Below, piece after piece: positions 21,400 to 45,512 of a stretch of 45,512 bases of DNA (position 1 is the stretch's first letter; each line of letters begins with the position of its first letter). The notes beneath the pieces are model-generated. The model did no database searches. It was given only the letters and a program-made list of their open reading frames with translations, and was not told the DNA's origin. Position numbers and translations under genes: made by a program. Origin of the DNA: Clostridia bacterium (GTDB lineage Bacteria; Bacillota; Clostridia; Oscillospirales; CAG-272); NCBI GenBank assembly GCA_017508195.1, contig JAFVZL010000027.1, positions 1-45,512 of the forward strand, written 5' to 3'.

Positions 21400-21675
21400 A
21401 TAAAGCCATTTTCAAAGACAATGACGGAAACTACCCCCTTTTCGGATGCTGCAGAGAGTCGGCGGTTGGTGCGAGCCGATGCGGACGGTTGGGTGTTCTT
21501 CTTCCCGAGTCGGTCTTGTCAAAGCGTGAGCGAGTAATGAGACACGGGTGCTCCCGTTACAGAGTACGACCTTGTTTGAGGTTTAAAGTGATTTCCCTTT
21601 TGGGGGATAATCAGGGTGGTACCGCGAATTGAATTTTCGTCCCTGAGCCGTACAGACGGACTCGGGGGCTTTTTA
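21400..21675 (+). ncRNA. T-box leader (riboswitch), specifier tentatively CTT (leucine)
   Basis: The stem I base pairs GACAA (21418-21422) with TTGTC (21515-21519). The distal part GCAGAGAGTCGGCGGTTGG is shared with the divergent T-box. T-box AGGGTGGTACCGCG is at 21613-21626 and a terminator stem with T5 ends near 21674. Aligned on GAG with the other leader, the specifier is CTT before CTTCCCGAG. The usual purine after the specifier is missing, so Leu is only tentative. Confidence 0.9.
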
Positions 21676-30823: not shown

Positions 30824-31662
30824 CAGAGCACCTCCGTCTTATGCCTTGTAACGTGACAGTTGATATTGACCGCAACGGGAAGACCCGCAATGTGTGTCGG
30901 GAACTTCTCGATATTCACGGCTAGAGCCGTGGTGCGTCCTCCAAAGCCCTGAGGACCGATGCCGAGAGCGTTTATCCTCTCGAGCAGCTCATCCTCAAGA
31001 GCCGCGTAATAGGGGTCGGAGTTTCGCTCGTCAACGGGGCGAAGCAGCGCGCACTTTGCAAGGTATGCAGCCTTATCAAAGGTACCGCCGATGCCGACAC
31101 CGACAACGATGGGGGGACAGGGGTTAGGACCCGCCTCAAGAACGGTGCGGATAACGAACTCCTTCACTCCCTCGACTCCGTCAGAGGGTCTGAGCATCGC
31201 GATTTTCGACATATTTTCACTGCCGAAGCCCTTCGGAGCAACGGTTATCTCGAGCTTGTCGCCGGGCACTATATCGTAGTAGATCATAGCAGGGGTGTTG
31301 TCGCCCGTATTGACTCTGTCAAGAGGATCGCGCACAACGCTCTTTCTCAGATATCCCTCGGTGTAGCCCTGACGGACACCCTCGTTCACCGCACGGGTGA
31401 GATCTCCGTCAATGTGAACGTCCTGGCCTATCTTCAAAAATACGCAGGCGACGCCCGTATCCTGGCAGACGGGACAATCGTTCTCGTCTGCTATCTCATA
31501 ATTTTCAATTATACGGCCGAGTATCTCCTTTGCGCCCTGCCACTCTTCCCTCTCATAGCAGGAAGAAATGCAATTCTTTATATCATCGGTAAGATGGCAG
31601 TTTGCCTCTATGCACAGCCTTTTGACTGTCTCGGTCACTGCCGTAGCCTTGATTTCTTTCAT
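30823..31662 (-). CDS. fumA: Class I fumarate hydratase alpha subunit
   Basis: 279 aa. The cluster ligands are in CPVCQDTGV (about 62-70), NPCPPIVVGVGIGG (about 180-193) and YLAKCALLRPV (about 199-209). AAGGA lies seven bases before the ATG. First gene of a two-gene operon with fumB. The upstream 186 bp hold no clear consensus promoter but are AT-rich, and the operon must start there because the large gene set to the right ends at a terminator. Confidence 0.92.
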   Translation of the reverse strand: MKEIKATAVTETVKRLCIEANCHLTDDIKNCISSCYEREEWQGAKEILGRIIENYEIADENDCPVCQDTGVACVFLKIGQDVHIDGDLTRAVNEGVRQGYTEGYLRKSVVRDPLDRVNTGDNTPAMIYYDIVPGDKLEITVAPKGFGSENMSKIAMLRPSDGVEGVKEFVIRTVLEAGPNPCPPIVVGVGIGGTFDKAAYLAKCALLRPVDERNSDPYYAALEDELLERINALGIGPQGFGGRTTALAVNIEKFPTHIAGLPVAVNINCHVTRHKTEVL

Positions 31663-31800
31663 ATATGTATCCTTATTTCCTTAATCCAAACGGGGAGATA
31701 AATAGCCTTTAAACTCCATGATATCCATCGAAAAAACAGGTAAATTCAAACAATCGTTTACAATTATGCGTTTTTCAGTTACCTTACAAGAAAAAAGACA

Positions 31801-31844
31801 AAAGCTTAACGAGGGCAGCCCTGACGGGCAGCCCTCGCTCTTTT
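31801..31844. terminator. Terminator at the end of the large membrane-scaffold operon
   Basis: CGAGGGC-A-GCCC pairs with GGGC-A-GCCCTCG (31810-31836), loop TGAC, with CAAAAG/CTTTTG arms outside and a T-rich stretch on the minus side. It lies directly after the last gene of the large operon and ahead of fumA. Confidence 0.7.
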
Positions 31845-31848
31845 GCTA

Positions 31849-33609
31849 TCAGCGCTGAATAGCGAACTCGATGTCAGAGGCGATTCTGTCGCCCTCCTCA
31901 TAGAGCTTCTCATACTCAACGTAATCGTTAACGAGACCGTCAACGACCTTCTTTGCCTCGGCAAGAGCCTTGGCATTCATCTCTTTGATCTGTTTTCTCT
32001 TAGCCTTGTTGCTGAAGAGCTTGTAGATCGCGTAGATGCACGCTACGGGAGCACCTATAAGGAGTACAACTCCGAGGAGTCCGAGCAGCGAATCAAGACC
32101 GCCCTCAAACACTATGAACAGCGGCAGAAGATTAAGCACGAGTCCGACTACGGCAAATACGACTGCAAGAGTAAAGCCGACCTTAACAGGGGTGTCCTTG
32201 ATAAGCGAGAGCTGATACTTCTCGCGGTCTGCATAGAACTGCTCGACCTTCTTGTGCTCGCGATCGCGCTGCTTGAAGTTGAAGTTCGTTGCGTACTCTC
32301 TGATGGTTACGGGATGGGTATCGGAGATGTTCTTGCGATATTCTGCGAAGTATCTCTTTGCAGCCTCGAGGATCACGTCCTTCATGAGGTAGAACATATT
32401 GCATCTTGCAACGTCGTTGATATCCGTCTCGGGTGCGACGAAGAGCCAGTTAAGACACTCAACGGTAAGGTTGAGGGCAGTCTCCTGATGCTCGTGATAT
32501 TTGTTGAACGCCTCGCTTGCCGCTCCGATATCTCCAACGTTCTTGATGATGAACTCGTTGTACTCTATCTCGTCGGTATAGGTCTTCTCCTTCTTGTCGG
32601 GAGTCTCAAGCAGCTCTGCTATAAACTTCTCAACATAGAGGTAGCCCTTATTTCTCGTGGCGTTGTTGGTAGTCTCGACAAAGTCGAGGATTGCCGCGTT
32701 ATCCTTAGCCATGGTAAGAGTAGTAGCCATGGTGGAATAATCTCTTACATAGTTGCGTAAGAAGTTGAACACGAACTTGTTAGAGGAATTGCACTGAACG
32801 AGATGTGCCTTAACGAAGTTTACTACCTCGTCCTTGTCGTTCATCTCGAGAGAGTTCTCGTACTCCTCACGAAGATAGCTCGTGATCTCGGCGGTGAGAG
32901 GATCGGATGCATCCTCTCTGAGGTTGGTCGCATGTAAGAGAAGAAGAATAAAGCGTGCGTCGTTACCGGTCTTGTCAAGCTTTCTGAAGCACTGGAACCA
33001 CTTGAGAGTGGCATCCTTTCTGCCCATAAGCATATTGAATGACATGAAGAACAGCACGGTCTGCTTCTCGTCGAGCTCGAGCGCAAGACCGATAGCACGG
33101 TTTGCCGCCTCCTGCTCGTCGCTTCTCCAATGCATAATTGCCAGCATCGCTGCCGACAGCCAGAAATCAGGCGACTGAAGGTGCTCCTTCTCTACCGCCT
33201 TATAGATCGTCTCGGGCTTGACCATTTCAAGATTGACATTGTCAATGAATGCACGAACGATCTTTCTTACCATTCTGAAATTCTGGAATTCAAAATAGAG
33301 CTTATTGTTGAGATCGCGGATCTTCTTGTTCGCGGTCTCTATATTCTTAAAGCCCTGATAAAGCACGCTGATATGATCCTGCTCGTCGGATATCGTCTCG
33401 AGCACCTGTTCGGAATGCGCGATGATATTGGCAGAGGACTCAAGCGTGCTGGTCGCTCTGTTTCTCGTTCTTACGAGCGAGTTGGTAGCAGAGTTGACCG
33501 AATTAAGCAGGGCATTTAACTCACTTCTCATCTGAGCGTTCTCGCGCTCAAGCTGTGAGCACTCGCTCTCGAGTGAGCTGATTGCACTTCTTAATGAACT
33601 CGCGTCCAT
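31849..33609 (-). CDS. Coiled-coil/helical-repeat/two-TM protein, paralog C (last operon gene)
   Basis: 586 aa. An N-terminal coiled coil (about 5-130, with serine- and glutamate-rich heptads) leads into an alpha-helical, TPR-like middle. Two TM helices follow (about 463-480 and 500-525), then a short cytoplasmic helix (KRKQIKEMNAKALAEAKK). It shares with paralogs A and B the segment FWLSAAMLAIMHWRSDEQ, then ANRAIGLALELDEKQ, then LFF. AAGGAGG lies nine bases before ATG 33609; the frame reaches back to 33636 but that start has no site. The preceding gene's TAG ends one base before the ATG. The family is not one I recognise. The TM hairpin suggests a membrane scaffold or anchor subunit. Confidence 0.75.
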   Translation of the reverse strand: MDASSLRSAISSLESECSQLERENAQMRSELNALLNSVNSATNSLVRTRNRATSTLESSANIIAHSEQVLETISDEQDHISVLYQGFKNIETANKKIRDLNNKLYFEFQNFRMVRKIVRAFIDNVNLEMVKPETIYKAVEKEHLQSPDFWLSAAMLAIMHWRSDEQEAANRAIGLALELDEKQTVLFFMSFNMLMGRKDATLKWFQCFRKLDKTGNDARFILLLLHATNLREDASDPLTAEITSYLREEYENSLEMNDKDEVVNFVKAHLVQCNSSNKFVFNFLRNYVRDYSTMATTLTMAKDNAAILDFVETTNNATRNKGYLYVEKFIAELLETPDKKEKTYTDEIEYNEFIIKNVGDIGAASEAFNKYHEHQETALNLTVECLNWLFVAPETDINDVARCNMFYLMKDVILEAAKRYFAEYRKNISDTHPVTIREYATNFNFKQRDREHKKVEQFYADREKYQLSLIKDTPVKVGFTLAVVFAVVGLVLNLLPLFIVFEGGLDSLLGLLGVVLLIGAPVACIYAIYKLFSNKAKRKQIKEMNAKALAEAKKVVDGLVNDYVEYEKLYEEGDRIASDIEFAIQR

Positions 33610-33610
33610 T

Positions 33611-35122
33611 CTAATTTCCCTCCTTCTTTGAAACACTTATTGCCTTGTCGCGTCCCCACTCGCGGCAATCTTCCACAAGCTCGGGGTTGCTCTTGGCAAT
33701 CGGTACAATACTTTGTATTTGTGATAGGATCTTCTCAATAGTAATCTCAATATCGGGATGAACTATGATCTGCTGTGCAACCTCCTTTATTGCCATCTCG
33801 ATGTCGGAATAGCTGTAGCCGTCCGTCACCGCGACGATGCTCGCGACGTCCTCGTCCGAGAGCGTCATATGGAGCGACTTCTCGCAATAAAGTCTGACAG
33901 TATCCGCACGCTCGCACTCCGTAGGCAGATCTGCGAAGAATATCTCCGAGAATCTTCCCTTTCTGAATAGCTCGGGCGGGAGCTTGCGCACGTTGTTTGC
34001 GGTTGCAACGAGGAATACTCTCGAATGAGATTCCTGAAGCCAGAATAAGAACTGTCCGAGAACACGGTTGCCCGTATCGTTTGAGGTATCCGAGGTGGAG
34101 AGCATCTTCTCGATCTCGTCGATCCAGATAACGCAGGGAGAGACGTTGTCGATGAAGTCGAGTGCCTCGCGCATCTTGCGCTCACTCTCACCCATCCACT
34201 TGTCAAACAGGTTACCTATATCGAACTTGTAGAGGGGCAGACCCCACTCCTTCGCGATCATCTTCGAACAGAAGGACTTTCCGCAGCCGGGAACACCCGA
34301 GAGCAGAATACCCTTAGGAACCTTCAGCTCGAACTTGTCGAGCACGGCATCGGTTGCAAAGAACACCTTTCGCTTGGAAACGAGCCACTCCTTGAGGTTT
34401 TCCATACCCGAGACCCGTATTTCACGGGGCAGAGCTACCTTCTGAACAGCACAGAGGTCACCGAAGAGCCTGTCTTTTTTCTTGGCAAGCTCGGTTATAC
34501 CCTCGCGGTACAGACCGTTCTTCGATATTATCTCAGCAGACAGAATATTCTGCAGCTGTATCTCCGAAAGACCCTTCAGGACGGTAGCAACGTAGGATAT
34601 GTCAGCCTCGGTCCACTCGACTCTGAACATACGCTTGTACTGCTCGATGAACTCGTCTATCATAGCGGCGATCTCGTCGTGGTTCGGATAATCGAGCTTG
34701 GTAAATACTCCAAGCGCGCTGAGGCGCGACCAGATGGGATCCGCGGTTATGATGATAACAGACGAGCTGCTCTCGCGTGCAAGGTATATAAGGTTAAGAA
34801 GCTCTCTTGAATATGCGTTATCGTTCTCGATACGGGTAATGTCACCGATAGCGAAGATGTTATTCCTCGACTTCTTGAACTTATTCATTGCATATTCCAG
34901 CGGATCGTGATCGATATCCGAGCTCGAGTGCGCGCTCTGGCTGCCTATGGTAGCGAGCTGCCTTGCCTCGGTATAGTAATCGAAGGAGATCCTGTTCTCT
35001 GTGGCAAGCTCGAAAAGCATCTTTTCCGCGCGCTCGCGCTCGCCCGATTCAATAACGATGAAGGGCGTCCTTGCCTTTATGTATATAAGCAGTTCCTCTT
35101 TTGCGCGATGGTAGTTGCTCAC
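33611..35122 (-). CDS. Ycf46-like AAA+ ATPase
   Basis: 503 aa. The N-terminal ~200 residues are a degenerate ATPase-like domain (KARTPFIVIESGERERAEKM). The C-terminal AAA+ domain has Walker A GVPGCGKS (276-283), Walker B VIWIDEIE (331-338), sensor ATANN, and the arginine-finger region LFRKGRF. The order and wording (WIDEIEKM, GQFLFWLQESHSRVFLVATANN) match the cyanobacterial/plastid Ycf46 family. GTG 35122 has AGAGGTG six bases before it, which overlaps the upstream stop; longer ATG starts lack a site. Such ATPases remodel protein complexes; here the partners are probably the three TM paralogs that flank it. Confidence 0.85.
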   Translation of the reverse strand: MSNYHRAKEELLIYIKARTPFIVIESGERERAEKMLFELATENRISFDYYTEARQLATIGSQSAHSSSDIDHDPLEYAMNKFKKSRNNIFAIGDITRIENDNAYSRELLNLIYLARESSSSVIIITADPIWSRLSALGVFTKLDYPNHDEIAAMIDEFIEQYKRMFRVEWTEADISYVATVLKGLSEIQLQNILSAEIISKNGLYREGITELAKKKDRLFGDLCAVQKVALPREIRVSGMENLKEWLVSKRKVFFATDAVLDKFELKVPKGILLSGVPGCGKSFCSKMIAKEWGLPLYKFDIGNLFDKWMGESERKMREALDFIDNVSPCVIWIDEIEKMLSTSDTSNDTGNRVLGQFLFWLQESHSRVFLVATANNVRKLPPELFRKGRFSEIFFADLPTECERADTVRLYCEKSLHMTLSDEDVASIVAVTDGYSYSDIEMAIKEVAQQIIVHPDIEITIEKILSQIQSIVPIAKSNPELVEDCREWGRDKAISVSKKEGN

Positions 35123-35127
35123 TTTCG

Positions 35128-35637
35128 TCACCTCTTGCCTTCTCTCATAATTCGTTTTAAATTCATGGACAGTCCGCACATAGAACAACCGTAGCTCTCA
35201 GCCTTCTCGAAATATTTAAGCAGCTCACTGTTGAAGCTATCTATTTTTTCCTCGAGCTGAGATGCGAGATCATCCCTGTACTTTGCATCTAAAAAAACTA
35301 AGTTGCGGAAGAAAAACAGGTTTCGGTACATCGTATTGTAACGTCTTATTGTCAAAAGCAGGTATTCTCCGTTGGCCTCATCGGTGTACTGCTGTACGAG
35401 AGCCGAGAGCTTCGCGAAGAATTTTCCTATCTGAGCCTCGATGAATTCAGCGAGCCTCGATTTGAAATCCGCAAGGTAATACTTAGCGTCCTCGAGAGAG
35501 CCGCCCTCGAGCATCTTGCTTTTTTCCTTGCCGATGAAGGTCGATGAGGTATCGAGCTCCGTTACCCACTCCTTATAAAACGCGGGATATACCGCCTCTT
35601 TTTTTACGATTGCTCTTTTTTTAAATGCAAATATCAT
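35128..35637 (-). CDS. Conserved-context 169-aa helical protein with C-terminal CxxC
   Basis: Mostly helical, Lys/Glu-rich, with aromatic-rich helices (RYNTMYRNLFFFRNLVFLD, about 105-123) and a C-terminal GCSMCGLSMNLKRIMREGKR that could bind a metal or form a disulfide. No membrane segment. Its ATG follows the 57-aa gene's stop by two bases with no own Shine-Dalgarno, so translation is coupled. It sits between the small gene and the AAA+ ATPase. I do not recognise the family; it may be an adaptor for the ATPase. Confidence 0.65.
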   Translation of the reverse strand: MIFAFKKRAIVKKEAVYPAFYKEWVTELDTSSTFIGKEKSKMLEGGSLEDAKYYLADFKSRLAEFIEAQIGKFFAKLSALVQQYTDEANGEYLLLTIRRYNTMYRNLFFFRNLVFLDAKYRDDLASQLEEKIDSFNSELLKYFEKAESYGCSMCGLSMNLKRIMREGKR

Positions 35638-35639
35638 GA

Positions 35640-35813
35640 TTACTTAAGGAAGCCCTGGGGAGGCTCAAGACTCCACTTGGGGAGCTTCTTGTTCATTTCC
35701 TTGAGTTTTTCTTCGTTAGGATCGAGCTGCTCATCCTCAGCGTAGCTGTCGATGAGGTTCTGATCAATACCCATATCCATCATTTCCATGTTTTCATTCA
35801 TATTTTCAGACAT
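35640..35813 (-). CDS. 57-aa small protein with conserved-looking C-terminal KWSLEPP tail
   Basis: ATG 35813 has GAGG eight bases before it; stop TAA at 35640-35642. The N-terminus is Met/Asn/Glu-rich (SENMNENMEMMDMGIDQN), the middle is acidic, and the C-terminus is KKLPKWSLEPPQGFLK. It is too short for a standard ORF cutoff. It lies between paralog B and the 169-aa protein with tight spacing on both sides, and codon use is normal, so it is very likely real. It could be a ligand peptide for the helical proteins or for the ATPase. The function is unknown. Confidence 0.75.
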   Translation of the reverse strand: MSENMNENMEMMDMGIDQNLIDSYAEDEQLDPNEEKLKEMNKKLPKWSLEPPQGFLK

Positions 35814-35847
35814 TGTATTATCCTCTTTCTTTCATCAAAATTTAGAA

Positions 35848-37491
35848 TTAAAGATGCTCAATAAGGTTGAAGAGCTTGTTCTTGTTCGAGATGTTCTCGA
35901 AGTATGTCTTTCTTATGCTTGCGAGCTCTGCGAAGCAGCCCGAAAGAAGTGCAAGCTTCTCTTTTACCATCTTCCTGAACTTGCCGCCTGCGGTAAGGCA
36001 ACGTACAACGAGGATAATGGCAAGAATTGCAGCTACGCCGAAGAGGCCGTAGGAGAGATAAGTGCCGAGCTCCTCCATCATACCGGTTGCAAGGAGGGTA
36101 ATACCCGCGACAAGTGCAAGCACGAAGCCAACGAGCATCTTGATGTTGGTGTTGTTGAAGTACATGGTCCTGTACTTGTTCTCTTCAAGGTGCTCCTTGA
36201 ACTTGGTCTCGTGAGTGTAAGCATCCTCGCCGTCACTCTCGCAGGACCAGTCGTCGATGGTGATGGTATACTTGGTGGGGAAGCTCTCCTCCATATCGCC
36301 AGACCATCTCTCGAGCGCCTCGGTGAACCATACTCTGGAATTCTGAAGTGCGAACTTACGAACGTGAACGTCGATCTCGTCGGAGCCCTTGTAAACTACC
36401 CAGTCGAGAAGCTTGCGTCCGATGCTCTGAGTCTGATTACGCACTCTCATGCGCTCAGCAAACTGAGCCTCTGCAACCTCGACGTCTCCGCCGCTGTCAA
36501 CGATGAGCTGGAAGTACTCGCGCTGGTTCTTGATCTCCTGCTCTTCCTCGTCGTAGTTGGTGATAAGATCGTTGATAATGATGTCGATTCTCTTCTTGTA
36601 TTCGGAAGCGTTCTGTACGATAGCCTCAACGTCGAGCGACTCAACGAGTGCGATGAGGGGAGCGTACTTGAAGCTCTCGAGGTAAGGTGCCTTAAGCTCT
36701 GCTGCGTTGTCGCAGTACTTCATAAGGTGAGGGCAGGAGAAGCCCTGTCTTACCTGGATGTTGGCAATGTACTTCTCGTAGTCTCTTACGAGCTCCTCGG
36801 AGAGGTCCTCGTCGAGATTGATCTGCTTGATCCACTCGTCAACAACGGACTGTACCTCGAACTCGATGGACTTATCTACGCCGAATACGCCGTTGATGTA
36901 AGCCTGAATAAGTACGGAGGTCTCGTCCTGGATCTCGGTGGGAACGACCGATCTGAAGTAGGACATAAGCCAAGCCTTTGCGGGCTCGAGTCTGCCGAAT
37001 CTGAGGTTAACAAGACAGAAGAACAGATTTGCCTTCATCTCGTTGGTATGTACCGCCTCGGATACAGCGTTGTTAGCAAGAGCCTTGCTGTCGTTTACCC
37101 ATGCGCTGAGCGCGATGAGTGCGAAGGAGAGCCAATATCTCGAGCTTGTGATCCAAAGCTCCTCGGACAGCTCCTCGATGGTCGAGTTACGGCAGAGGTT
37201 GATATCAAACTCCTTAACTACGCCGCTGACTGTCTTTCTTACCTTAATATTGGACTCGAACTTCTCTCTGATAACCTGATCAAGTCTGAGAATGTTCTCA
37301 GTTGCGGCCTGCATCTGCTCGTCCTTGATCATCTTTTCCTTGAAATTATGGATCTTTCCTAAAGCAGTTTCCGCATTTCTTCTGGCGGTCTCGGTCTCTT
37401 GATCGATAACGTTGATTCTCGAGTCAACCTGAGATGTAAAGCCGCCAATGACTGAATTCAATTCATTAATTATTGATTGCGCGCTACTCAT
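35848..37491 (-). CDS. Coiled-coil/helical-repeat/two-TM protein, paralog B
   Basis: 547 aa. Same layout as paralogs A and C: N-terminal coiled coil (about 1-110), helical middle, a short beta segment TKYTITIDDWSCE (about 388), two TM helices (about 428-450 and 458-482), and a C-terminal helix. The shared signature is RYWLSFALIALSAWVNDSK, then ANNAVSEAV, then LFFCLVNLRFGR. The previous gene's TGA ends two bases before ATG 37491, and GAGGAG overlaps that stop. A GTG two codons earlier lies inside the site and is rejected. Not recognised as a named family. Confidence 0.75.
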   Translation of the reverse strand: MSSAQSIINELNSVIGGFTSQVDSRINVIDQETETARRNAETALGKIHNFKEKMIKDEQMQAATENILRLDQVIREKFESNIKVRKTVSGVVKEFDINLCRNSTIEELSEELWITSSRYWLSFALIALSAWVNDSKALANNAVSEAVHTNEMKANLFFCLVNLRFGRLEPAKAWLMSYFRSVVPTEIQDETSVLIQAYINGVFGVDKSIEFEVQSVVDEWIKQINLDEDLSEELVRDYEKYIANIQVRQGFSCPHLMKYCDNAAELKAPYLESFKYAPLIALVESLDVEAIVQNASEYKKRIDIIINDLITNYDEEEQEIKNQREYFQLIVDSGGDVEVAEAQFAERMRVRNQTQSIGRKLLDWVVYKGSDEIDVHVRKFALQNSRVWFTEALERWSGDMEESFPTKYTITIDDWSCESDGEDAYTHETKFKEHLEENKYRTMYFNNTNIKMLVGFVLALVAGITLLATGMMEELGTYLSYGLFGVAAILAIILVVRCLTAGGKFRKMVKEKLALLSGCFAELASIRKTYFENISNKNKLFNLIEHL

Positions 37492-37493
37492 TT

Positions 37494-39284
37494 TCACTCC
37501 TCCTCGCTAATCTTAAACTTGTTTAATACCTCGTACAGTACCGCACTCTCTGCGTCTGCCTCGGTGTACTGCTTGCGCCATTCCTGTATCGCCTTGATAA
37601 CACCCTGAAGTCTTTCAAGCGACTGATTCATAAGCTCTGTCACCTTTGCACCCACACTGCGCCTCTTGAAGATGAGCCAGATGAGGAAGCCGACGCCGCC
37701 TATGAAGGAGACAACGAACAGTACGATAAGCCATACCGGCCAACCGCCCTCGGAATTCATGGTGAATACCGATGCGATAATGCTGATAAGCCACAGAGCG
37801 AAGAAGCCTATGGTAACACCCGTGAGGATCTTAACGCCCTTGTTCTGGGAGATGAAGCGGTTGCGATTCTTCTTGTAGTAATCGCGCATCTGAAGTGCAG
37901 CCTTCTCAGGCGCCTTCTCGTCTACTGTTACCTTGCAGGTATCGATGGTAACCTCGTGAGTATCCTTAACGGTAGACTGATACTGCTTTCTGAACTGCTC
38001 AAACGCCTTCTGCAGACTGTCTACAAGGAAGGATACGGCAAACTTACGCACGCGGAGGTCTACGCCGTCACCCGATGCGGGGAGCGCGATCTTCAGCATA
38101 AGGTCGCCGAGGGACTGTGACTTACGGGGAGCATACTTGAGCTGATGCATCTTGTTTGCCGCCTCGACGTCACCGCGTGCCTTAAGAACCATATCATAGT
38201 AGTCCATGCTCTTTATGATATCGAACTCTGCCTCGTCGTACATGTTGATAAGATCGTAAAGAACGTTCTGTATTCTGTCCGAAAGGCTGGCAGGTGCAGA
38301 GCTGTCCTCATTGTACAGCTCGTCAAAGTATTTAGCGAACTCAGAGTTCTTTTCTGCGTCGGAGAGAGCGTTGATAAGCTGTCTGTAATCTCCGCAGGTC
38401 CTCTGAAGCTCTACGAACTCGTCAGCCGCCTTGTGAACGTAAGCGGATATGTACTCGAGTGCGTAGGAAACGGTCTTCTTGTCGTAGCCAAGGTTGGTAT
38501 TGCGTATCTCTTGAAGAAGCTCGTTGAACTTCTCGCGAATTCTTGCCTTGAACTCGGGGTTGGTACCGCAGATATTGTACAGGTAGACCTGAAGGAGAAT
38601 ACTCATTTCATCTCCTACGTTGTTAACGTCGATCTCCTGGATATAGAGCTCGTACCACTTCTCCGCAGCCTCGTGTCTGCCGAAGCTGAGGTTGATAAGA
38701 AGGAAGAAGAGCATGCTCTTGTGCTTATCTATGCTAAGCGCCTTTGCAACAGCTCTGTCCGCTGCCTCCTTCTCGTCACTCACCCAAAGCATCGTTGCCA
38801 TAATGCAGTGTGAGATCCAATAGTCTGCGTTCTGAAGATAATTCTTCTCTACCGTGAGTCTGAGACGCTCGTTGCTGACGATATTCTTATCCATACCGAC
38901 AACGTATCCGAGAGTAACTCTTCTGAGGGTCTGGTAAAGACCGAAGTTCTTCTGGTAATCATTGTTCAACTGTGTGAGCTTCTTTGATGCGGTGCTGATG
39001 TTTTTGATGATAAAGTACTTCTTCGACAAGTCGTCGATCTCGATCTCTACCGCCTTAACAAGATTGGCAACCTCTGTCACTGCCTCAGACGATACAGCGA
39101 GCCTCGGCACGATGTAGCGTTGAACAGCGGCACCTCTCTCAATCAGCTCAACGGTCGCGTTCATGGAAAAATTCAACTCAGCGACCAACTGGTTGTACTC
39201 GTTCACGAGATTGTTTCTGCGTGCTACAAGTCGGTTGTACTCATTAGTCAATCGTTGCAGTTCTTCATATTCTTCCTGATCCAT
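37494..39284 (-). CDS. Coiled-coil/helical-repeat/two-TM protein, paralog A
   Basis: 596 aa. N-terminal coiled coil (about 1-110), helical middle, a beta segment DTHEVTIDTCKVTV (about 432), two TM helices (about 478-500 and 510-535, GWPVWLIVLFVVSFIGG), and a C-terminal helix that ends EVLNKFKISEEE. The shared signature is DYWISHCIMATMLWVSDEKE, then ADRAVAKALSIDKHKS, then LFFLLINLSFGR. AAGGAGGTC lies eight bases before the ATG. The middle of all three paralogs has a TPR-like rhythm but no exact TPR consensus. The gene directly follows the zinc-ribbon protein and precedes paralog B by three bases. Confidence 0.75.
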   Translation of the reverse strand: MDQEEYEELQRLTNEYNRLVARRNNLVNEYNQLVAELNFSMNATVELIERGAAVQRYIVPRLAVSSEAVTEVANLVKAVEIEIDDLSKKYFIIKNISTASKKLTQLNNDYQKNFGLYQTLRRVTLGYVVGMDKNIVSNERLRLTVEKNYLQNADYWISHCIMATMLWVSDEKEAADRAVAKALSIDKHKSMLFFLLINLSFGRHEAAEKWYELYIQEIDVNNVGDEMSILLQVYLYNICGTNPEFKARIREKFNELLQEIRNTNLGYDKKTVSYALEYISAYVHKAADEFVELQRTCGDYRQLINALSDAEKNSEFAKYFDELYNEDSSAPASLSDRIQNVLYDLINMYDEAEFDIIKSMDYYDMVLKARGDVEAANKMHQLKYAPRKSQSLGDLMLKIALPASGDGVDLRVRKFAVSFLVDSLQKAFEQFRKQYQSTVKDTHEVTIDTCKVTVDEKAPEKAALQMRDYYKKNRNRFISQNKGVKILTGVTIGFFALWLISIIASVFTMNSEGGWPVWLIVLFVVSFIGGVGFLIWLIFKRRSVGAKVTELMNQSLERLQGVIKAIQEWRKQYTEADAESAVLYEVLNKFKISEEE

Positions 39285-39327
39285 TGATTTGACCTCCTTT
39301 TTTCTTTTTTTATTTTGAGTTTTTGCG

Positions 39328-41310
39328 TTACCACTTAAAATCGTTTGCTACCTGGCTGACCTTTGCGGGAAGCTTATCCTTATAAAGCTCGACGAACTTC
39401 TGAATCTTAAGCTTCTTGCGTTCCGCAGGGAGCTCCACGGGAAGATCGAGCCTCATTCTGATGTTCTTCATCGCCTTCAGCGTCTCCTGAGTCACGAACG
39501 CATCGTCCGGACCCGCGAGCAGGTATACGTGTCCGAGCGTGCCTGTTACGGCAATGCCCGCGACGTTTACGTTAAAGGTAGCGGTTTTAAGATCATCACG
39601 GCACGCCGCAAGATATCTCGGAGCGTTGATAGCCTTACCCGAGGATGGCTCCGTGACGCGCATGATGTACTTAACGAGATTATTTCCGCCTATTGAGAAC
39701 GAGCCCTTTGTCGCAAGCTCTGCAACGAAGGTGTTGTACTTCGAGGGGTCGGAAAGTGCACTGAGATACTGATCGAAGGTCGTGGGGAGAGCTCTTGCGC
39801 CCACCGCATTAAACTTGGTCAGCACCTCCTTCGAGTGTATCTCAGAGAAGTTGCAAAGATAAGCACTGAAGGATTTAGGATCGGGATTAAGCTTGAAGCC
39901 GAGGAAGATGCTTATTATCTTCTCTCTGGTCTTGGCGGGGTCGATCCTCGTTACGAGATATTTTGAGAACAGATCCGAGTAAAGGCTTACGTGCGTTGCC
40001 TTGCCGAGAAGCATGGTCACGAACTCGTCCTTATATTCACCGTCAGCGGTATAAGCGAGAACGTATCTTTCGACCACCGCGAGCTGAACGCTCTCGACTC
40101 TCGTGAGAAGCACCTCAAGAAGATCGCGTCTGTACTCGTACTCTCCGGGATTTTCAAGCAGGCAATACGCGAGAAGTCTGTCGATATTCTTGCCCGAAAT
40201 CTTGAAGTTTGACAACATCTGTTTGCATTTAGCAAGCTTAACGTCGTCATCCTGAGCAGATTTCAGAAGCGGGAGCACGGTCTCGCAGGTGATCTCGAAG
40301 ATCGAGTTTGAGCTGAACAGCGCCTTGAAGCCAACCTCTGAGATCTCGGGATCCTCGCACTCGAGGATACACCAGTCGAGGATGACCTTCGCCGTCGCCT
40401 CGTCGAGTCTTTTTGATGCAAGTGCGCCAAATACGCGCCTTGCCTTCTCTACGTCGGTGCAGCTCGAGCACACCTTACTGATAACGGGGGCTGTGTTGAA
40501 GCCTACCTTGTGCGATACAGCCGTGAGGAATACGTCTACCACGCAGGACTGATCCGTCGTACCCTGGAAATAGGTGTCGAAGAGCTTCGAGTAGTCCGTA
40601 TCGGGGTTGCCCTTCGAGAGAAGCGCGTCGATATGCTCGCTCTTCTTCGGGCTGTCGGGATAGCTGTTAAGAACGGTGGATATACCGAATCTGACAGCAT
40701 CCGTCGTAATCTTGCCGAGAAGTATATCGGCATCCTCTACTCTGCCGTCCCTTAAGACGACTCCGAGCAGGAATTTCACGACGTTAGGATTGTAAACGTC
40801 CTCTATATCGAGGATGTTGTAGATGCAGGCAAGTCTGTCCCTTGCACCGATACTGCCGTATACAACGGCAAGGATACCGAGAAGGTCTGCCGAGTCGAGG
40901 AAGTCGTAGAGGATATGCTCCTCGTTCTCGATCTCCTCAAACTCGCGGGCAAGTCTCTGACGGAGAAGATTTACCTTAGAAAGCTCCTGCTGACGGTCCT
41001 TCGAGAAGAAGGACTTGATAAGAGATACCGCGATGCTTGCTATAAGAGTTCCTACGAAGGAGTGATTTATCTTCTCACACTCGAGAAGGTCTCTCTCGGC
41101 TCCCTGGAAATCGAGCGAGGCTACGCGGGAGAGAGTCGAGCGCACAAGGTCGTTGATACCTGCAAGACCGTCGATCTGCACCTTGTTGAAGCGCAGCTCC
41201 CTCTCGTATATCTTACCGCAGTACGGGCATTCCCAATACTTTTCCTTCTTGTTATAAACAAGACCGCCCTGACAATCCTGACATCGCTGTTGTGTAAAAT
41301 GCTCTGCCAT
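39328..41310 (-). CDS. Zinc-ribbon protein with a long alpha-helical repeat body (YdjG-like position)
   Basis: 660 aa. An N-terminal zinc ribbon, CQDC (10-13) and CPYC (28-31), opens the protein. The rest is about 600 residues of alpha-helical repeats of HEAT/ARM type, without a membrane segment (one weakly hydrophobic patch near 90-110). The C-terminal domain has FNVNVAGIAVTGTLGHVYLL (about 577). CGGAGTG precedes the ATG. In B. subtilis the ydjG-ydjH-ydjI genes have a zinc ribbon, a membrane protein and an SPFH/zinc-ribbon protein, which matches the three-gene order here. The helical body is far longer than in YdjG, so this is a resemblance in layout, not an identification. Confidence 0.7.
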   Translation of the reverse strand: MAEHFTQQRCQDCQGGLVYNKKEKYWECPYCGKIYERELRFNKVQIDGLAGINDLVRSTLSRVASLDFQGAERDLLECEKINHSFVGTLIASIAVSLIKSFFSKDRQQELSKVNLLRQRLAREFEEIENEEHILYDFLDSADLLGILAVVYGSIGARDRLACIYNILDIEDVYNPNVVKFLLGVVLRDGRVEDADILLGKITTDAVRFGISTVLNSYPDSPKKSEHIDALLSKGNPDTDYSKLFDTYFQGTTDQSCVVDVFLTAVSHKVGFNTAPVISKVCSSCTDVEKARRVFGALASKRLDEATAKVILDWCILECEDPEISEVGFKALFSSNSIFEITCETVLPLLKSAQDDDVKLAKCKQMLSNFKISGKNIDRLLAYCLLENPGEYEYRRDLLEVLLTRVESVQLAVVERYVLAYTADGEYKDEFVTMLLGKATHVSLYSDLFSKYLVTRIDPAKTREKIISIFLGFKLNPDPKSFSAYLCNFSEIHSKEVLTKFNAVGARALPTTFDQYLSALSDPSKYNTFVAELATKGSFSIGGNNLVKYIMRVTEPSSGKAINAPRYLAACRDDLKTATFNVNVAGIAVTGTLGHVYLLAGPDDAFVTQETLKAMKNIRMRLDLPVELPAERKKLKIQKFVELYKDKLPAKVSQVANDFKW

Positions 41311-41333
41311 TTAAATATTCACTCCGTGATGTC

Positions 41334-42068
41334 TTATTTGGAATCTGCGAGACGCTTATTTCTCTTGGAAATAGCAAGCTGAGTTTTAACAATGGTGGTA
41401 GCGGCAGACGCATTGTCGCCGTTTGCTACGTGTACCTCAAGCTCTGCGATGAGATCCTTGATTGAAAGATCGAGATCTGCAACGACCTCGCTGGTCATGG
41501 GATCGGAGTAACGGATATCCTCTGCGAGGCGGTTAAGCTTAGCCTTGAGCTCGCCGTCGGTAACGGACTCTGCAAGAACCTCAACGTCGGTAACGAGGTT
41601 GCGGATCTGAAGGACAGAGTGCTTGATGTGCTGGTCGATCTGCTGTACAACGGACTTATGGGTAAGGCTGATGATAAACGCAGCGATGTAAAGACCGAGC
41701 ACGATGACCTCGAGCACGAACATGACCATAAAGGGAACGTCAACGCCGCAAGCAACGAGGATCATGAACGCAAGCGAGAGAACGAAGGTCACACCGAGGT
41801 AGAACAGAGATATGCTGAAGAGGTTAAATCCGAAGAATATAGCCTCTGCACCGTCCTCAAACCTACCCATTACAAGCGAGACGACCTGCATTGCGGCAGA
41901 GATCATAACGAACGCATAAGCGAACCAGAATACGAGTCTCATATTGTCGGTCGCAAACTGGCTGGGCTTGAATATCGAGAATATTACAAGATTAAAGAGT
42001 GCAACGATTATAAGATAAACAATGACGGTAGAAATAACCGCTTTTCTTCCAAGCTTCATGGGTTTCAT
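41334..42068 (-). CDS. Four-TM membrane protein with cytoplasmic helical tail (YdjH-like)
   Basis: 244 aa. Four TM helices (about 10-31, 46-67, 76-106 and 112-136) are followed by a soluble helical tail (about 145-244) with many acidic and leucine residues. AGGAGG lies eight bases before the ATG. It lies between the SPFH protein gene (15 bp) and the zinc-ribbon protein gene (23 bp). By position and topology it resembles B. subtilis YdjH, where the membrane protein partners an SPFH protein. The tail could bind the SPFH protein or the zinc-ribbon body. Confidence 0.75.
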   Translation of the reverse strand: MKPMKLGRKAVISTVIVYLIIVALFNLVIFSIFKPSQFATDNMRLVFWFAYAFVMISAAMQVVSLVMGRFEDGAEAIFFGFNLFSISLFYLGVTFVLSLAFMILVACGVDVPFMVMFVLEVIVLGLYIAAFIISLTHKSVVQQIDQHIKHSVLQIRNLVTDVEVLAESVTDGELKAKLNRLAEDIRYSDPMTSEVVADLDLSIKDLIAELEVHVANGDNASAATTIVKTQLAISKRNKRLADSK

Positions 42069-42083
42069 TTGCTATTCCTCCTA

Positions 42084-43310
42084 TTACTTAAGTCTGGTTC
42101 CGCAGTTAGAGCAGAAGGCAGCGTTGCCATCCACCTCTGCGCCGCAGCCGGGACACATATTCTTGGTCTCAACGCGGGTACCGCAGCTCGAGCAGAACTT
42201 AGCACCGGGGTTAAGACGCGCACCGCAATTCATGCAGAAGCCGCCGCCTGCGGGGGCTGTCTGAGGAGCTGCCTGAGGTGCTGCCTGAGGCTGATAGCCT
42301 CCGTTAAGGAAATCGTTTACGTTAAGCGACTTTCCGCTGTCCTGAGTATTTACGGTTCTAGGAATAACGGGCTCTGCCTGCTGAGGCACACCGCCGCCCA
42401 TCTGGTTATCCATACCGCCGAACACACTGTTCGAGATGGAGCCCATTGCGGCACCCATGCCTGCGCCCATTCCGGCGCCCATGCCCATGCCCATGCCGAC
42501 GCCCATCATGTTGCCTGCCATACCCTCGTTGGATGCAGCGGCCTGAAGGACCTCGTACATTCTCTCCTTATCCCAGGTCGTACCCTCAGCGACACGTCCT
42601 GCGCTTCTCTGCTTAGCAGCCTGAAGCTCGTTGTAATCCTCTCTAGGAACGTCGATGGTCTCGATGTTGAAGAAGAGGAGCTCAAGGCCGTAGCTGTCGA
42701 AGATAGGCTGAAGCTGCTGCATAACGAGCTCAGCGATATCGTAGATCTTCGCGTTCATGATGAAGAAGCTTACCGAGCCGAGGATCATGATCTTGGATAT
42801 GTAATCCTTAACTCTTGCCGAAATAATACCTCTGAGGTTGCCAATCAGATCCTGGTTTGTGAAGGTCTCCTTGTTACCTACGAACTTGAGAAGGAACTTT
42901 CTCGAGTCTACTATCTTGATAGCCATCGTTCCGCAGCATCCTACGTGGAGGAAGATGTTGTAGACGGGATCGTCTACTGCAATAGCACCCTGAGTTCCCC
43001 ACTTGAGCTCGAGCTGATGTACCTTATTAACGAAGTATACGCTGCAGGGGAAGGGGTTCTTTGTGGTGAGCCTCTCGTACTGCTCCTTGAGCATAGGAAT
43101 ATTTGCAGTGATGAGAGTGTGTCTGCCCGCCTTGAAGAGGTCGAGTGCGTTACCGTTTGCGAACAGTATAGCCTCATGGAACTCGTCTACTATAAGCTGA
43201 GAGCCGGCGTTAATGCCTTCGTCTCCGTAGATTGAGTATTCCTTACCGGTGTCGTGCCATACCAGCGCGTCCTCGGGACCGGCAAACTTGATGGTTTCAA
43301 CAATTGCCAT
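42084..43310 (-). CDS. SPFH-domain protein with C-terminal double zinc ribbon (YdjI-like)
   Basis: 408 aa. An SPFH/virion-core-type domain (about 1-240) is followed by a Gly/Met-rich linker (GVGMGMGMGAGMGAGMGAA, about 275-293) and a Pro/Gln linker. Two zinc ribbons end the protein: CMNC...CSSC (about 357-374) and CPGC...CSNC (about 387-404). Related bacterial proteins form oligomers at membranes and respond to membrane stress; B. subtilis ydjI is in the sigma-W pspA operon. AAGGAG precedes the ATG. It probably forms the scaffold core of this operon, with the four-TM protein as its membrane partner. Confidence 0.9.
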   Translation of the reverse strand: MAIVETIKFAGPEDALVWHDTGKEYSIYGDEGINAGSQLIVDEFHEAILFANGNALDLFKAGRHTLITANIPMLKEQYERLTTKNPFPCSVYFVNKVHQLELKWGTQGAIAVDDPVYNIFLHVGCCGTMAIKIVDSRKFLLKFVGNKETFTNQDLIGNLRGIISARVKDYISKIMILGSVSFFIMNAKIYDIAELVMQQLQPIFDSYGLELLFFNIETIDVPREDYNELQAAKQRSAGRVAEGTTWDKERMYEVLQAAASNEGMAGNMMGVGMGMGMGAGMGAGMGAAMGSISNSVFGGMDNQMGGGVPQQAEPVIPRTVNTQDSGKSLNVNDFLNGGYQPQAAPQAAPQTAPAGGGFCMNCGARLNPGAKFCSSCGTRVETKNMCPGCGAEVDGNAAFCSNCGTRLK

Positions 43311-43379
43311 TTTGAATTCTCCTTTTTGGATATTTATTTGTTTTCTTTTGCGAATTAAAGCCGATGTTAAATTCCGTAA

Positions 43380-43739
43380 TCAGTTTCTTCTTCCGCCGCG
43401 GAACTCCTCGAGAAGCTTCTCGAAGCTTATTATCGAGCCTGCAACGAGCTTTTCTCCCGTCTCGTCGATAAGCATATGAAGTCCGCCCCTCTTGGGATTC
43501 CAATAATAGAGGAGAGCGTCCTCCGCTATCTCCTTCGAGCAGCCCTTAAGCGTCTCGGTATCCACACCGAGTATCTCGGACGCTGCCGCGTCAAGCTCTT
43601 CCCTTGTCATATTCCACTTGACGTCTTCCTCGTCGCACTCTCCGAAGATGGCATCAACGTCCTCGGGGGCAAGCTCGGGGTTGGTGTCCTCGGTAAGAAG
43701 CTTTTCTTCCTCGGTATTCTGAATATTCTTATCTTCCAT
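43380..43739 (-). CDS. 119-aa acidic protein coupled to the papain-fold gene
   Basis: ATG 43739 overlaps the papain-fold gene's stop (TAATG), with GGAGA seven bases upstream. The N-terminal 45 residues are acidic (EEEKLLTEDTNPELAPEDVD). A compact alpha/beta part follows (about 50-119, EDALLYYWNPKRGGLHMLID) and the end is basic (FRGGRRN). Not recognised. In polymorphic toxin loci a small acidic gene right after a toxin is often its immunity protein, so an inhibitor of the papain-fold domain is possible. An adaptor to the SPFH protein is equally possible. Confidence 0.6.
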   Translation of the reverse strand: MEDKNIQNTEEEKLLTEDTNPELAPEDVDAIFGECDEEDVKWNMTREELDAAASEILGVDTETLKGCSKEIAEDALLYYWNPKRGGLHMLIDETGEKLVAGSIISFEKLLEEFRGGRRN

Positions 43740-44632
43740 TACCAATCTCCTCTCTTAACGCTCATTTCCCAATTGACCACGTTGCCGTAATCGGGCGGCC
43801 AATCCGTGACCGTACCCGACTGACCGTCGACACAGTATACCTTGCCGTCACGGCAGATGGCGTTAAACCAGTGACCGGGGCCCTCGGCTCTGTCGATACC
43901 TATTATGGCGTGCGCACCGTCACCCTGAGCAAGCAGTCTTGCCTCGATCTCCGAGGGAGACATGGGCACCTGCTCCATGCCCGTAAGGGCTTCCATCTCA
44001 TCGTTATAGCCGATGTTGACCGCACTTGCGACCGCACCCGTGTCACCGTATTCAAGCCTTCTGTAAAGATTGTAGGCACAGGAGCCGCAGTTATTACAGT
44101 AGGGTGAAGTATAGTCGTAGGGATCGAAGTTCGGGTTTATCTCGTGTATCCAATCCTCGATGTTGGTGTGATCCATAACCACGTCGGTGTGGACCGTATT
44201 CACCTCGGGATACGCCTCGGCAGCTATCTTTGACCAGTTCGGCTCCTCTGCCGAATCGGAATCGAATATCTCCGAATCCATAAGAGGACGCTCGAAGTGG
44301 TATTCCTCGGAGGCTGCCTCCTCCTTTATATCACTCGTCGAATCGTTATCCGAGAAGATATCCGACGAATTAAAGTCATTCACCTTGAGGTCATCTATCG
44401 AGAAGGCATCCTCCTCGAGGGTAAAGGCAAAAGCGTCGGACGCGCCGACCTCGGCCTGATAAAGCTCCTCGAAAAGCTCGTTGTCCTCAGCAAGCTTCTC
44501 TAAGAACTCCTTGTTAGACTCCTCTATCATTTCGGAGAAGTCCATATCCTTGATCTCGCGGCTGTCGCCCGAGACCTTCTCTTCGGAAAATTCACCGTCT
44601 GAGGTGAACTCGCCGTACTTGTTAAAGGCCAT
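43739..44632 (-). CDS. Protein with C-terminal papain-like (Tox-PL type) domain
   Basis: 297 aa. The N-terminal ~170 residues are acidic and probably disordered (many Asp/Glu/Ser). The C-terminal domain has the papain-fold toxin pattern: INPNF (about 165-169), NNCGSCAYNLYRRLE (C182 and C185), GPGHWFNAI (H254) and VDGQSGTV (D269), giving a likely Cys-His-Asp triad. GGGAG lies seven bases before ATG 44632. An in-frame reading back to 44896 only crosses the upstream gene. Related domains are peptidases or glutamine deamidases in polymorphic toxins. No signal peptide, no WXG or LXG head, so it may act inside the cell. Confidence 0.75.
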   Translation of the reverse strand: MAFNKYGEFTSDGEFSEEKVSGDSREIKDMDFSEMIEESNKEFLEKLAEDNELFEELYQAEVGASDAFAFTLEEDAFSIDDLKVNDFNSSDIFSDNDSTSDIKEEAASEEYHFERPLMDSEIFDSDSAEEPNWSKIAAEAYPEVNTVHTDVVMDHTNIEDWIHEINPNFDPYDYTSPYCNNCGSCAYNLYRRLEYGDTGAVASAVNIGYNDEMEALTGMEQVPMSPSEIEARLLAQGDGAHAIIGIDRAEGPGHWFNAICRDGKVYCVDGQSGTVTDWPPDYGNVVNWEMSVKRGDW

Positions 44633-44651
44633 AGTATTTCTCCCTTCTCGC

Positions 44652-45512
44652 TTATTTTTTACCGGTATCGTTACCGTCTTCCTTGTCATCCTCAGAGGGG
44701 CGGTAGCCATATCCCTCGAAGCCCTCGGGCGGATCTCCAACAAGAGGATCGGGCTCGGTCTCATCCATGTACTTCTGGAGATTGATCCTGTTCTGCTCCT
44801 CCTGGTCCTTGACCCTTCCGTCAGCCCACTCTCCCATAGCGTCAAGATAATTCTCGAGGAACTCAATTCTGGCAGCATAGGGGTCAACGGGTGCATCGGT
44901 ACTGATAGAATCGGGCTCTGACATAGTAACCTCTATATTCTGCCCATCATCCACCTTGTAGTCCGCCGGCACCGAATCCGCGGGTATGGTTATAGTGATG
45001 CCGCCATCGGTCTTTCCGTTCAGGAAATCATCGAGTTGCGCATCTATCTGCGCCTCTATCGAGCCTTCCGGATGAGCGGGAGCCTCGTACTCCTGTACTA
45101 TCTCGGTCTGATTAATATTTTCCGCCGCCTGCTGCGCGTTGTAATTAGATACCTCAACCGCCGCACCGAGTGTACTGATCGCAAGTCCTACGGATGCGAT
45201 CGGCTTCAGCACCTTCGATACAAATGGATTCTTCTCGCTCTTGTCTTTATCACCGTCGGATTTATCCGACTGCTCTTCGGCATCCTCGGCAGGCTTCTCT
45301 AAGGCATCCTCCTCAAGTCCTATGTCCTCGAGCTGCTCCTCATCGCTCTGCTCCTCGAGCTTTATCTCCTCGTCCTCGTCAAGTCCTATATCCTCGAGGT
45401 CCTTTTCATCATCCTGCTCCTCGAGCTTAATCTCCTCGTCCTCATTGAGCTCTATATCGTCGTGATCTACATCGTCTTCTTCGTATTCACGACCGTCATC
45501 ACCATCATCATC
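44652..45512 (-). CDS. Acidic repeat membrane protein, N-terminus beyond the window (partial)
   Basis: The frame is open to the window edge (100 codons past the GTG at 45212, with no stop), so 287 residues are visible and the true start lies outside. The visible N-terminal part is almost all Asp/Glu with a 22-residue repeat (EEIKLEEQ-DE--LEDIGL). A Lys/Asp linker and one hydrophobic helix follow (PIASVGLAISTLGAAVEV, about 20 residues). The C-terminal part is acidic, Pro-rich and soluble (DPPEGFEGYGYRPSEDD). The GTG at 45212 has no ribosome binding site and is not the start. One TM segment suggests a membrane-anchored protein. The stop lies 19 bp before the papain-fold gene. Confidence 0.75.
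   Translation of the reverse strand, partial: DDDGDDGREYEEDDVDHDDIELNEDEEIKLEEQDDEKDLEDIGLDEDEEIKLEEQSDEEQLEDIGLEEDALEKPAEDAEEQSDKSDGDKDKSEKNPFVSKVLKPIASVGLAISTLGAAVEVSNYNAQQAAENINQTEIVQEYEAPAHPEGSIEAQIDAQLDDFLNGKTDGGITITIPADSVPADYKVDDGQNIEVTMSEPDSISTDAPVDPYAARIEFLENYLDAMGEWADGRVKDQEEQNRINLQKYMDETEPDPLVGDPPEGFEGYGYRPSEDDKEDGNDTGKK
45315..45447 (-). repeat. 66-bp in-frame tandem repeat coding an acidic 22-aa unit
   Basis: CTGCTCCTCGAGCTT recurs at 45348 and 45414, and AAGTCCTAT at 45315 and 45381, in each case 66 bp apart. The period is exactly 22 codons, so the repeat keeps the frame of the acidic protein. Confidence 0.8.

What the first reader, a model, noticed from the sequence alone, without database searches (positions are those of the whole stretch)
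31801..45512. Twelve-gene membrane-scaffold/AAA+ operon of unknown function
Seen: twelve genes on one strand with short gaps or overlaps (largest 69 bp), ending at a hairpin at 31.8 kb. They encode an SPFH/double zinc-ribbon protein, a four-TM protein, a zinc-ribbon helical-repeat protein, three paralogous coiled-coil/two-TM proteins, a Ycf46-like AAA+ ATPase, three small proteins, a papain-fold protein and an acidic repeat membrane protein. Known: B. subtilis ydjG-ydjH-ydjI has the zinc ribbon/membrane/SPFH trio in the sigma-W pspA operon. Inference: this is an enlarged version in which an ATPase and three scaffold paralogs build a membrane assembly, possibly with a papain-fold effector. I know of no named system with this full set.
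Basis: partly seen in the sequence, partly recalled or inferred. Interest (0 to 1): 0.85.

Follow-up and report, generated by a model that had tools for sequence, protein, structure and literature searches.

The report
Toxin-loaded membrane machine of Clostridia
A set of membrane and motor-protein genes that stays together in scattered Clostridia sometimes carries a swappable peptidase with its own matched small partner gene, which looks like a previously undescribed way for bacteria to deploy toxins.

Summary
The operon is real: 12 same-strand genes, largest gap 69 bp, ending at a strong terminator hairpin. It runs off the contig; its likely start, on another contig, adds a HerA-type pumping ATPase.

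A nine-gene core (SPFH, 4TM, zinc-ribbon protein, three paralogs, microprotein, helical protein, Ycf46-like AAA+) keeps its order in 17 of 19 further loci as far as contigs reach; one lacks SPFH, one lacks the AAA+ and helical genes. Each paralog forms its own clade.

Seven of the 19 carry a cassette: HerA, acidic-leader peptidase, small 3' gene. Full-length HerA occurs in those 7 genomes and in none of the other 12. The peptidase ends are of three unrelated types, and the small gene changes with the type in 10 of 10 loci. One peptidase domain searched in 127 genomes gave one strong hit, with acidic leader and matching small gene, near an SPFH-HerA locus.

This is the signature of polymorphic toxin-immunity pairs without a known secretion signal. 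Export by HerA and the core is inference. My paper searches found no description.

The parts
44652..45512 (-). g01: 3' part of an acidic-repeat protein with one TM peak; its 5' part probably lies on contig C31 of the same genome
   Evidence: Open at the contig end; C31 starts with the last 13 bases of the window, in the same reading frame; pieces not joined
43739..44632 (-). g02: acidic leader plus C-terminal papain-fold domain (Gln_amidase), putative toxin
   Evidence: PF15644 1.1e-7, over its cut-off; Cys and His motifs shared with L062 and L064
43380..43739 (-). g03: small protein that goes with the papain type, putative immunity protein
   Evidence: Among the 10 loci its relatives lie only behind papain-type peptidases
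42084..43310 (-). g04: SPFH domain plus double zinc ribbon
   Evidence: PF13421 1.2e-33, PF12773 3.9e-11
41334..42068 (-). g05: multi-TM protein of the core
   Evidence: Three hydropathy peaks; orthologs in the same place
39328..41310 (-). g06: long zinc-ribbon protein of the core (ZnRep)
   Evidence: CxxC pairs by eye; orthologs in the same place
37494..39284 (-). g07: CC1, paralog with two TM peaks
   Evidence: Own clade, support 100/98; TM peaks
35848..37497 (-). g08: CC2, paralog of CC1
   Evidence: Own clade, support 100/100; almost all-helical model with a long N-terminal helix, pLDDT 77
35640..35813 (-). 57-aa microprotein with a W-S-L-E-P-P motif near its C-terminus
   Evidence: Same motif, with a one-letter change in L071 and L075, in the 18 relatives examined
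35128..35637 (-). g09: helical protein, divergent member of the s165 family
   Evidence: Position and alignment, 13-20% identity; helical bundle, pLDDT 87
33611..35122 (-). g10: AAA+ ATPase with an N-terminal extension, Ycf46-like (name recalled)
   Evidence: PF00004 7.3e-31; 52-53% identity to two relatives
31849..33609 (-). g11: CC3, paralog of CC1
   Evidence: Own clade, support 100/100
31780..31846 (-). Intrinsic terminator of the operon
   Evidence: Fold -34.2 kcal/mol, z -3.7, U-tract

Best explanation
The operon is a nine-gene membrane and AAA+ machine of Clostridia loaded with a polymorphic-toxin cassette. Shown: the core gene order is conserved with two exceptions in 19 loci; the cassette (HerA-type pumping ATPase, acidic-leader peptidase, small type-specific gene) comes and goes as a unit; the peptidase ends are exchanged between close relatives while HerA and the core stay alike. 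Inferred: the peptidase is a toxin and the small 3' gene its immunity protein. Inferred with less certainty: the long acidic, presumably disordered leader is the signal by which HerA engages the toxin at a platform of SPFH, multi-TM and zinc-ribbon proteins, the paralogs (with the AAA+ in most cases) remodel or open that platform, and the toxin leaves the cell towards competitors. In the window the cassette sits at the 5' end of the operon, with its HerA gene on contig C31.
For: Core order in 17 of 19 loci as far as contigs reach; the four relatives first found are among these 19. Each paralog slot is one clade (supports 100/98, 100/100, 100/100). Peptidase classes and small-gene classes by BLAST give the same partition of 10 loci (3 papain, 4 HExxH, 3 C39-like; chance under shuffled labels 0.0005, relatedness not counted). 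L062 and L065: HerA 83%, CC2 88%, peptidase ends 18% in the global alignment and no BLAST match. L065 and G493: HerA 41%, peptidase end 60%, small gene 42%. Acidic part 29-38% D+E in 9 of 9 proteins measured. The HExxH end searched in 127 genomes gave 1 strong hit, G292, with acidic leader and same-type small gene (47%), about 6 kb from a block of SPFH, 4TM-like, zinc-ribbon and HerA genes. PF15644 resembles Tox-PL1, mostly a toxin in polymorphic systems (passages of PMC3482391; that the two are the same domain is recalled). HerA belongs to the FtsK/HerA pumping family (PF01935).
Against: No export signal of a known kind was found, and nothing shows that the protein leaves the cell. In 11 of 18 loci with the interval in view the cassette is absent, so the core has a role without it. 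The cassette locus L079 has no AAA+ or s165 gene between CC2 and CC3, and its genome gave no AAA+ ortholog at 1e-60, so the AAA+ is not always needed. HerA-toxin sets occur without the AAA+/paralog part (G493, G292), and HerA without a toxin in the stretch read (G491). All three types are peptidase-like, so the small gene could be a substrate rather than an inhibitor. HExxH and C39 assignments rest on motifs and Pfam hits below cut-off. The link of C31 to the window is a 13-base, low-complexity overlap plus context.
Confidence: 0.5

Rival explanations
1. Intracellular defence or cell-suicide system: the membrane machine senses damage or infection, HerA assembles and switches on the peptidase inside the same cell, and the small gene is the peptidase's substrate or regulator.
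For: ATPase parts resemble those of defence systems (PADLOC mad8 1.3e-17 and HerA 5.5e-13 for the G548 HerA; IetA 9.5e-30 for the window AAA+); a one-paralog-form protein matches LeoBC at 1.1e-6; a TIR domain protein sits beside HerA in G493; the AAA+/paralog part alone is on a satellite phage record and plasmids; no secretion signal; a neighbouring substrate would also change with the peptidase type.
Against: Unrelated peptidase ends exchanged on similar leaders and HerA proteins, each with its own partner, is the pattern of polymorphic toxins; effectors of defence systems known to me do not usually carry a type-specific partner (recalled). Matches to PADLOC other than the ATPase modules are weak.
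Confidence: 0.28
2. Envelope-stress platform like B. subtilis pspA-ydjGHI: SPFH, membrane and zinc-ribbon proteins recruit a membrane-repair scaffold (here the paralogs in place of PspA), with the AAA+ recycling it; the cassette is an unrelated passenger.
For: SPFH protein YdjI with YdjG/H localises PspA to the membrane (abstract of PMC8581546); the core occurs without the cassette in 11 of 18 loci.
Against: The cassette is found at the same joint in 7 loci, and HerA keeps company with SPFH outside this core in G493 and G292, which a random passenger would not do. No PspA-type hit.
Confidence: 0.15
3. C31 is not the upstream continuation and the window operon has no HerA of its own.
For: The overlap is only 13 low-complexity bases.
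Against: It is the only HerA match in the genome, followed by an acidic gene that runs off the contig in the frame with which the window begins; the relative L068 is broken in the same kind of repeat with HerA on the other contig.
Confidence: 0.08

Closest known systems
Polymorphic toxin systems (Zhang et al. 2012, PMC3482391)
   Same: Variable C-terminal toxin-like domain on a shared kind of N-terminal part, with a type-matched small gene just downstream; papain-fold type PF15644
   Different: Leader is a long acidic stretch; no WXG/LXG, PrsW, SpvB, VgrG, MuF or PVC-metallopeptidase family among the Pfam hits of nine peptidase proteins scanned whole and one in part; tied to HerA and SPFH
Type VII secretion (FtsK/HerA ATPase EssC/YukBA)
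   Same: FtsK/HerA-family ATPase beside toxin-like genes in Bacillota
   Different: HerA protein with no TM peak; no WXG100 or EssC hit among the operon proteins
B. subtilis pspA-ydjGHI (abstract of PMC8581546, passages of PMC9239133)
   Same: SPFH protein plus membrane and zinc-ribbon partners in one operon
   Different: No PspA hit; AAA+, three paralogs, HerA and peptidase added; no sequence comparison run
HerA-based and IetAS anti-phage systems (PADLOC)
   Same: HerA ATPase near an effector; AAA module similar to IetA (9.5e-30)
   Different: Clear matches confined to the ATPase modules; effector, partner gene and membrane parts differ
Ycf46 AAA+ family (name and resemblance recalled)
   Same: N-terminal domain followed by an AAA module; PHROG 8638 over nearly the full length (4.6e-92)
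   Different: No paper on its function stood out in the 9 listed; in the loci read here it lies beside the paralogs

Membership tests
Polymorphic toxin system | C-terminal toxin-like domains that vary between close relatives | tested here: met
   Three types on cores whose CC2 is 77-88% alike (L062, L064, L065, L067, L068)
Polymorphic toxin system | Type-specific immunity gene directly downstream | tested here: inconclusive
   Type-specific partner in 10 of 10 loci; neutralisation not testable
Polymorphic toxin system | N-terminal domain of a known secretion route | tested here: not met
   No such Pfam family in 9 peptidase proteins scanned whole (window; L062 and L067 as L037 and L051; L064, L065, L078, L079, G493, G292); L068 scanned only at its C-terminal end
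Polymorphic toxin system | Toxic activity | not testable with these tools
   Needs expression tests
HerA/FtsK pumping ATPases | HerA central domain | tested here: met
   PF01935 2.2e-10 (window genome) and 1.2e-5 (G548), over cut-off; G114 copy just under it
SPFH/band 7 | SPFH domain | tested here: met
   PF13421 1.2e-33
pspA-ydjGHI envelope-stress operon | PspA/IM30 protein | tested here: not met
   No PspA family among Pfam hits of 11 of the 12 operon proteins
Type VII secretion | WXG100 protein and EssC-type ATPase | tested here: not met
   Not among Pfam or NCBIfam hits of the operon proteins; rest of the genome not searched
IetAS or other PADLOC system | Matches to the other components of the system | tested here: not met
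   Clear matches only in the AAA and HerA ATPase modules; LeoBC 1.1e-6 to a one-paralog-form protein is the best other hit

The most novel reading that the evidence does not exclude
A new bacterial toxin-deployment machine: a HerA motor pumps toxins with long acidic leaders through a membrane platform made of an SPFH protein, multi-TM and zinc-ribbon proteins, with three membrane-anchored paralogs usually worked by a Ycf46-like AAA+ ATPase. The toxins are exchangeable peptidases, each guarded by its own immunity protein.
Probability: 0.33. Interest if true: 0.93.

Novelty: new variant of a known kind. Interest (0 to 1): 0.73.

Why it matters
If the export reading holds, this is a route not among the secretory systems listed for polymorphic toxins in the 2012 survey (abstract and passages of PMC3482391), and it gives Ycf46-like AAA+ proteins and bacterial SPFH proteins a concrete job. 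Even without export it defines a compact membrane machine for which I found no description, with a simpler relative that occurs in several phyla. It offers ready tests: three peptidase-partner pairs, and natural loci with and without the cassette.
Full report
What is in the window. Twelve genes lie on the - strand between 45512 and 31849, with short gaps or overlaps, largest 69 bp. They end at a strong hairpin with a U-tract (-34.2 kcal/mol, z -3.7). Promoter-like sites in the stretch are fewer than in shuffles. Pfam names the SPFH/double zinc ribbon protein, the AAA+ ATPase and a papain-fold domain (PF15644); the other proteins scanned have no family above its cut-off (CC3; the microprotein was not scanned). 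NCBIfam gives no hit over a cut-off. PADLOC gives IetA-like matches to the AAA module and weak ones elsewhere.

The contig ends inside the operon. The window is the whole contig C15 of a 54-contig genome. A search of this genome with a relative's HerA protein found one match, on contig C31, whose gene ends 457 bases from the contig's edge. There HerA (893 aa) is followed by an acidic gene that runs off the contig. The first 13 bases of C31 equal the last 13 of the window, and the reading frames agree. I compared the ends and did not join them. Upstream of HerA on C31 is a 275-bp gap and then a cyclophilin-like gene (name by eye), so HerA is probably the first gene of the operon.

The core is conserved but rare. 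In the family sample, 2 of 195 other genomes hold a full-length ortholog of the AAA+ protein (54 and 52% identity), and a third a partial one; the other matches of that search are generic AAA hits (189 of 196 genomes matched something). Profile searches with CC2 gave 5 of 393 other genomes in the order sample, 2 with the large form and 3 with a one-paralog form, and 2 of 397 others in the phylum sample, one of the one-paralog form and one very weak. A pattern scan of a collection of 84,980 species with five CC2 sequences gave 19 loci, among them Hungatella hathewayi WAL-18680.

Order and exceptions. The order SPFH, 4TM, ZnRep, CC1, CC2, microprotein, s165, AAA+, CC3 is kept as far as the contig or stretch reaches in 17 of the 19 loci. 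L066 shows no SPFH gene on the operon's strand before its 4TM gene. L079 has neither s165 nor AAA+ between CC2 and CC3, and its genome gave no AAA+ ortholog at 1e-60, whereas L064, L073 and L076 genomes did; the L076 genome's copy has one stop inside. L073, L074 and L076 are cut by contig ends, and L065 has an insertion between AAA+ and CC3. A tree of 61 proteins puts the CC1, CC2 and CC3 slots and the one-paralog form each on one side of a strongly supported branch. The window's proteins split off first in each slot, on long branches and with modest support inside the CC1 and CC2 slots.

The microprotein. Between CC2 and s165 there is a small gene that ends in a W-S-L-E-P-P motif in the window and, with one letter changed in L071 and L075, in the 18 relatives examined; L076 ends before it. 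A similar motif ends a small protein of the one-paralog form, for example in G309, G371 and Fusobacterium. It seems to be a constant part of the paralog/AAA+ module.

The one-paralog form. Paralog, small protein, helical protein and AAA+ occur without SPFH, in the stretches read, in Clostridia (G309, G371), in G738 of the phylum sample, in Fusobacterium vincentii (a 2.1-Mb record labelled plasmid), Comamonas and Komagataeibacter plasmids and at the end of the record of Streptococcus satellite phage Javan368. G482 has a membrane and a zinc-ribbon gene added. One IMG/VR contig encodes the paralog (neighbourhood not read). A record's end may contain host DNA, so carriage by the satellite is likely and not certain.

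The cassette. In 18 of the 19 relatives the ZnRep-CC1 interval or its right-hand part is in view. Seven have HerA, an acidic-leader peptidase and a small gene there (L062, L064, L065, L067, L068, L078, L079); 11 have 0-83 bp. The 19th, L074, is cut. A whole-genome search found full-length HerA (over 1100 bits) in exactly those 7 genomes and in none of the other 12; G985 (L074) has only a distant one of 227 bits, and G990 a distant one besides its own. By hand the chance of such a split is 1 in 50,388 if the genomes were independent, which they are not. In L068 the assembly breaks in the acidic repeats, with SPFH-4TM-ZnRep-HerA-acidic on the other contig, much as in the window. In the window the cassette stands before SPFH and carries an extra acidic protein with a TM peak.

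Swapping. The peptidase ends are of three types: papain PF15644 (window, L062, L064), HExxH with a shared downstream glutamate (L065, L078, G493, G292; Pfam hits below cut-off) and C39-like (L067, L068, L079; below cut-off). BLAST clusters of the ends and of the small genes are the same partition of the 10 loci. L062 and L065 are 83% alike in HerA and 88% in CC2, yet differ wholly in peptidase end and partner; L065 shares its end and partner with G493, whose HerA is 41% alike. This is the polymorphic-toxin pattern described in PMC3482391 (passages seen).

A check by search. A profile of the HExxH end was run on 127 genomes of the order. It gave one strong hit (248.6 bits) and two weak ones (25-29 bits), neither of which has the HELWH motif; one is a Glu/Gln-rich repeat protein. 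The strong hit, in G292, is a 564-aa acidic-leader protein followed by the same type of small gene (47%), about 6 kb from SPFH, a 4TM-like gene (31 bits), a zinc-ribbon gene and HerA, which had been found earlier by HerA alone. In G493 the order is SPFH, a TIR/zinc-ribbon/TM protein, HerA, two further proteins, HExxH protein, small gene. Full-length HerA of this kind (over 700 bits) is in 5 of the 394 order genomes, the own one included. G491 has HerA with a zinc-ribbon gene and no toxin in the stretch read, which speaks against HerA being only for toxins. So SPFH or zinc-ribbon genes are HerA's usual company, and the AAA+/paralog core is an addition in one lineage.

How it most likely works. 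Shown: conserved core, optional cassette, exchanged ends with matched partners. Inferred: the peptidases are toxins and the partners immunity proteins. More tentative: HerA, a pumping ATPase, engages the acidic leader at an SPFH-organised membrane site and drives the toxin out; the paralogs and, where present, the AAA+ remodel or gate that site. L079 shows that the AAA+ can be missing beside a cassette, so I lowered this step from 0.45 to 0.40. The model of CC2 (pLDDT 77) is almost all helical and matches no solved fold clearly; g09 is a helical bundle. The main rival keeps the peptidase inside the cell as a defence or suicide effector, with the small gene as substrate or regulator.

What is known. 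SPFH protein YdjI, with YdjG/H, localises PspA to the membrane (abstract of PMC8581546; passages of PMC9239133). PMC7159879 (passages) names SPFH and HerA only in its references. Searches for HerA, SPFH, Ycf46, polymorphic toxin and related words listed no paper whose title or abstract start describes this set. The library holds open-licence papers only, so a description elsewhere is possible.

Noticed in passing
window 21005-21229 (-) and 21412-21647 (+): Two T-box leaders pointing away from each other, above the Rfam gathering score.
   Followed up: no
L126 9674-14257: The one-paralog/AAA+ operon lies at the end of the record of Streptococcus satellite phage Javan368, a possible accessory or defence cargo.
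   Followed up: partly
L123 1106-5629: The same small operon on a Komagataeibacter nataicola plasmid, between an IS3 transposase gene and a recombinase gene.
   Followed up: no
L079 9971-13822: A cassette-bearing locus whose core has lost, or never had, the s165 and AAA+ genes; no AAA+ ortholog in its genome at 1e-60.
   Followed up: partly
L154 (G987:C60:5690-7189): The AAA+ match in the genome of L076 has one in-frame TGA, so that copy may be broken.
   Followed up: no
L114 8072-13321, L139 274-5502, L142 7316-11705: A second HerA group (about 1000 aa) followed each time by a hydrophobic Ser/Gly-rich protein of 235-262 aa and a protein of 172-182 aa; looks like another HerA-based system.
   Followed up: no
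L125 8545-15033: Priestia megaterium plasmid HerA relative followed by an 1135-aa protein of tandem acidic repeats.
   Followed up: no
L111 12970-14748: A zinc-ribbon (by eye), TIR and TPR protein sits between SPFH and HerA in G493.
   Followed up: partly
L065 13871-15494: An IS110-like transposase frame (named by eye) sits between the AAA+ and CC3 genes.
   Followed up: no
window 30245-31662 (-): Two genes just downstream look like the two subunits of a class I fumarase (by eye, not searched).
   Followed up: no
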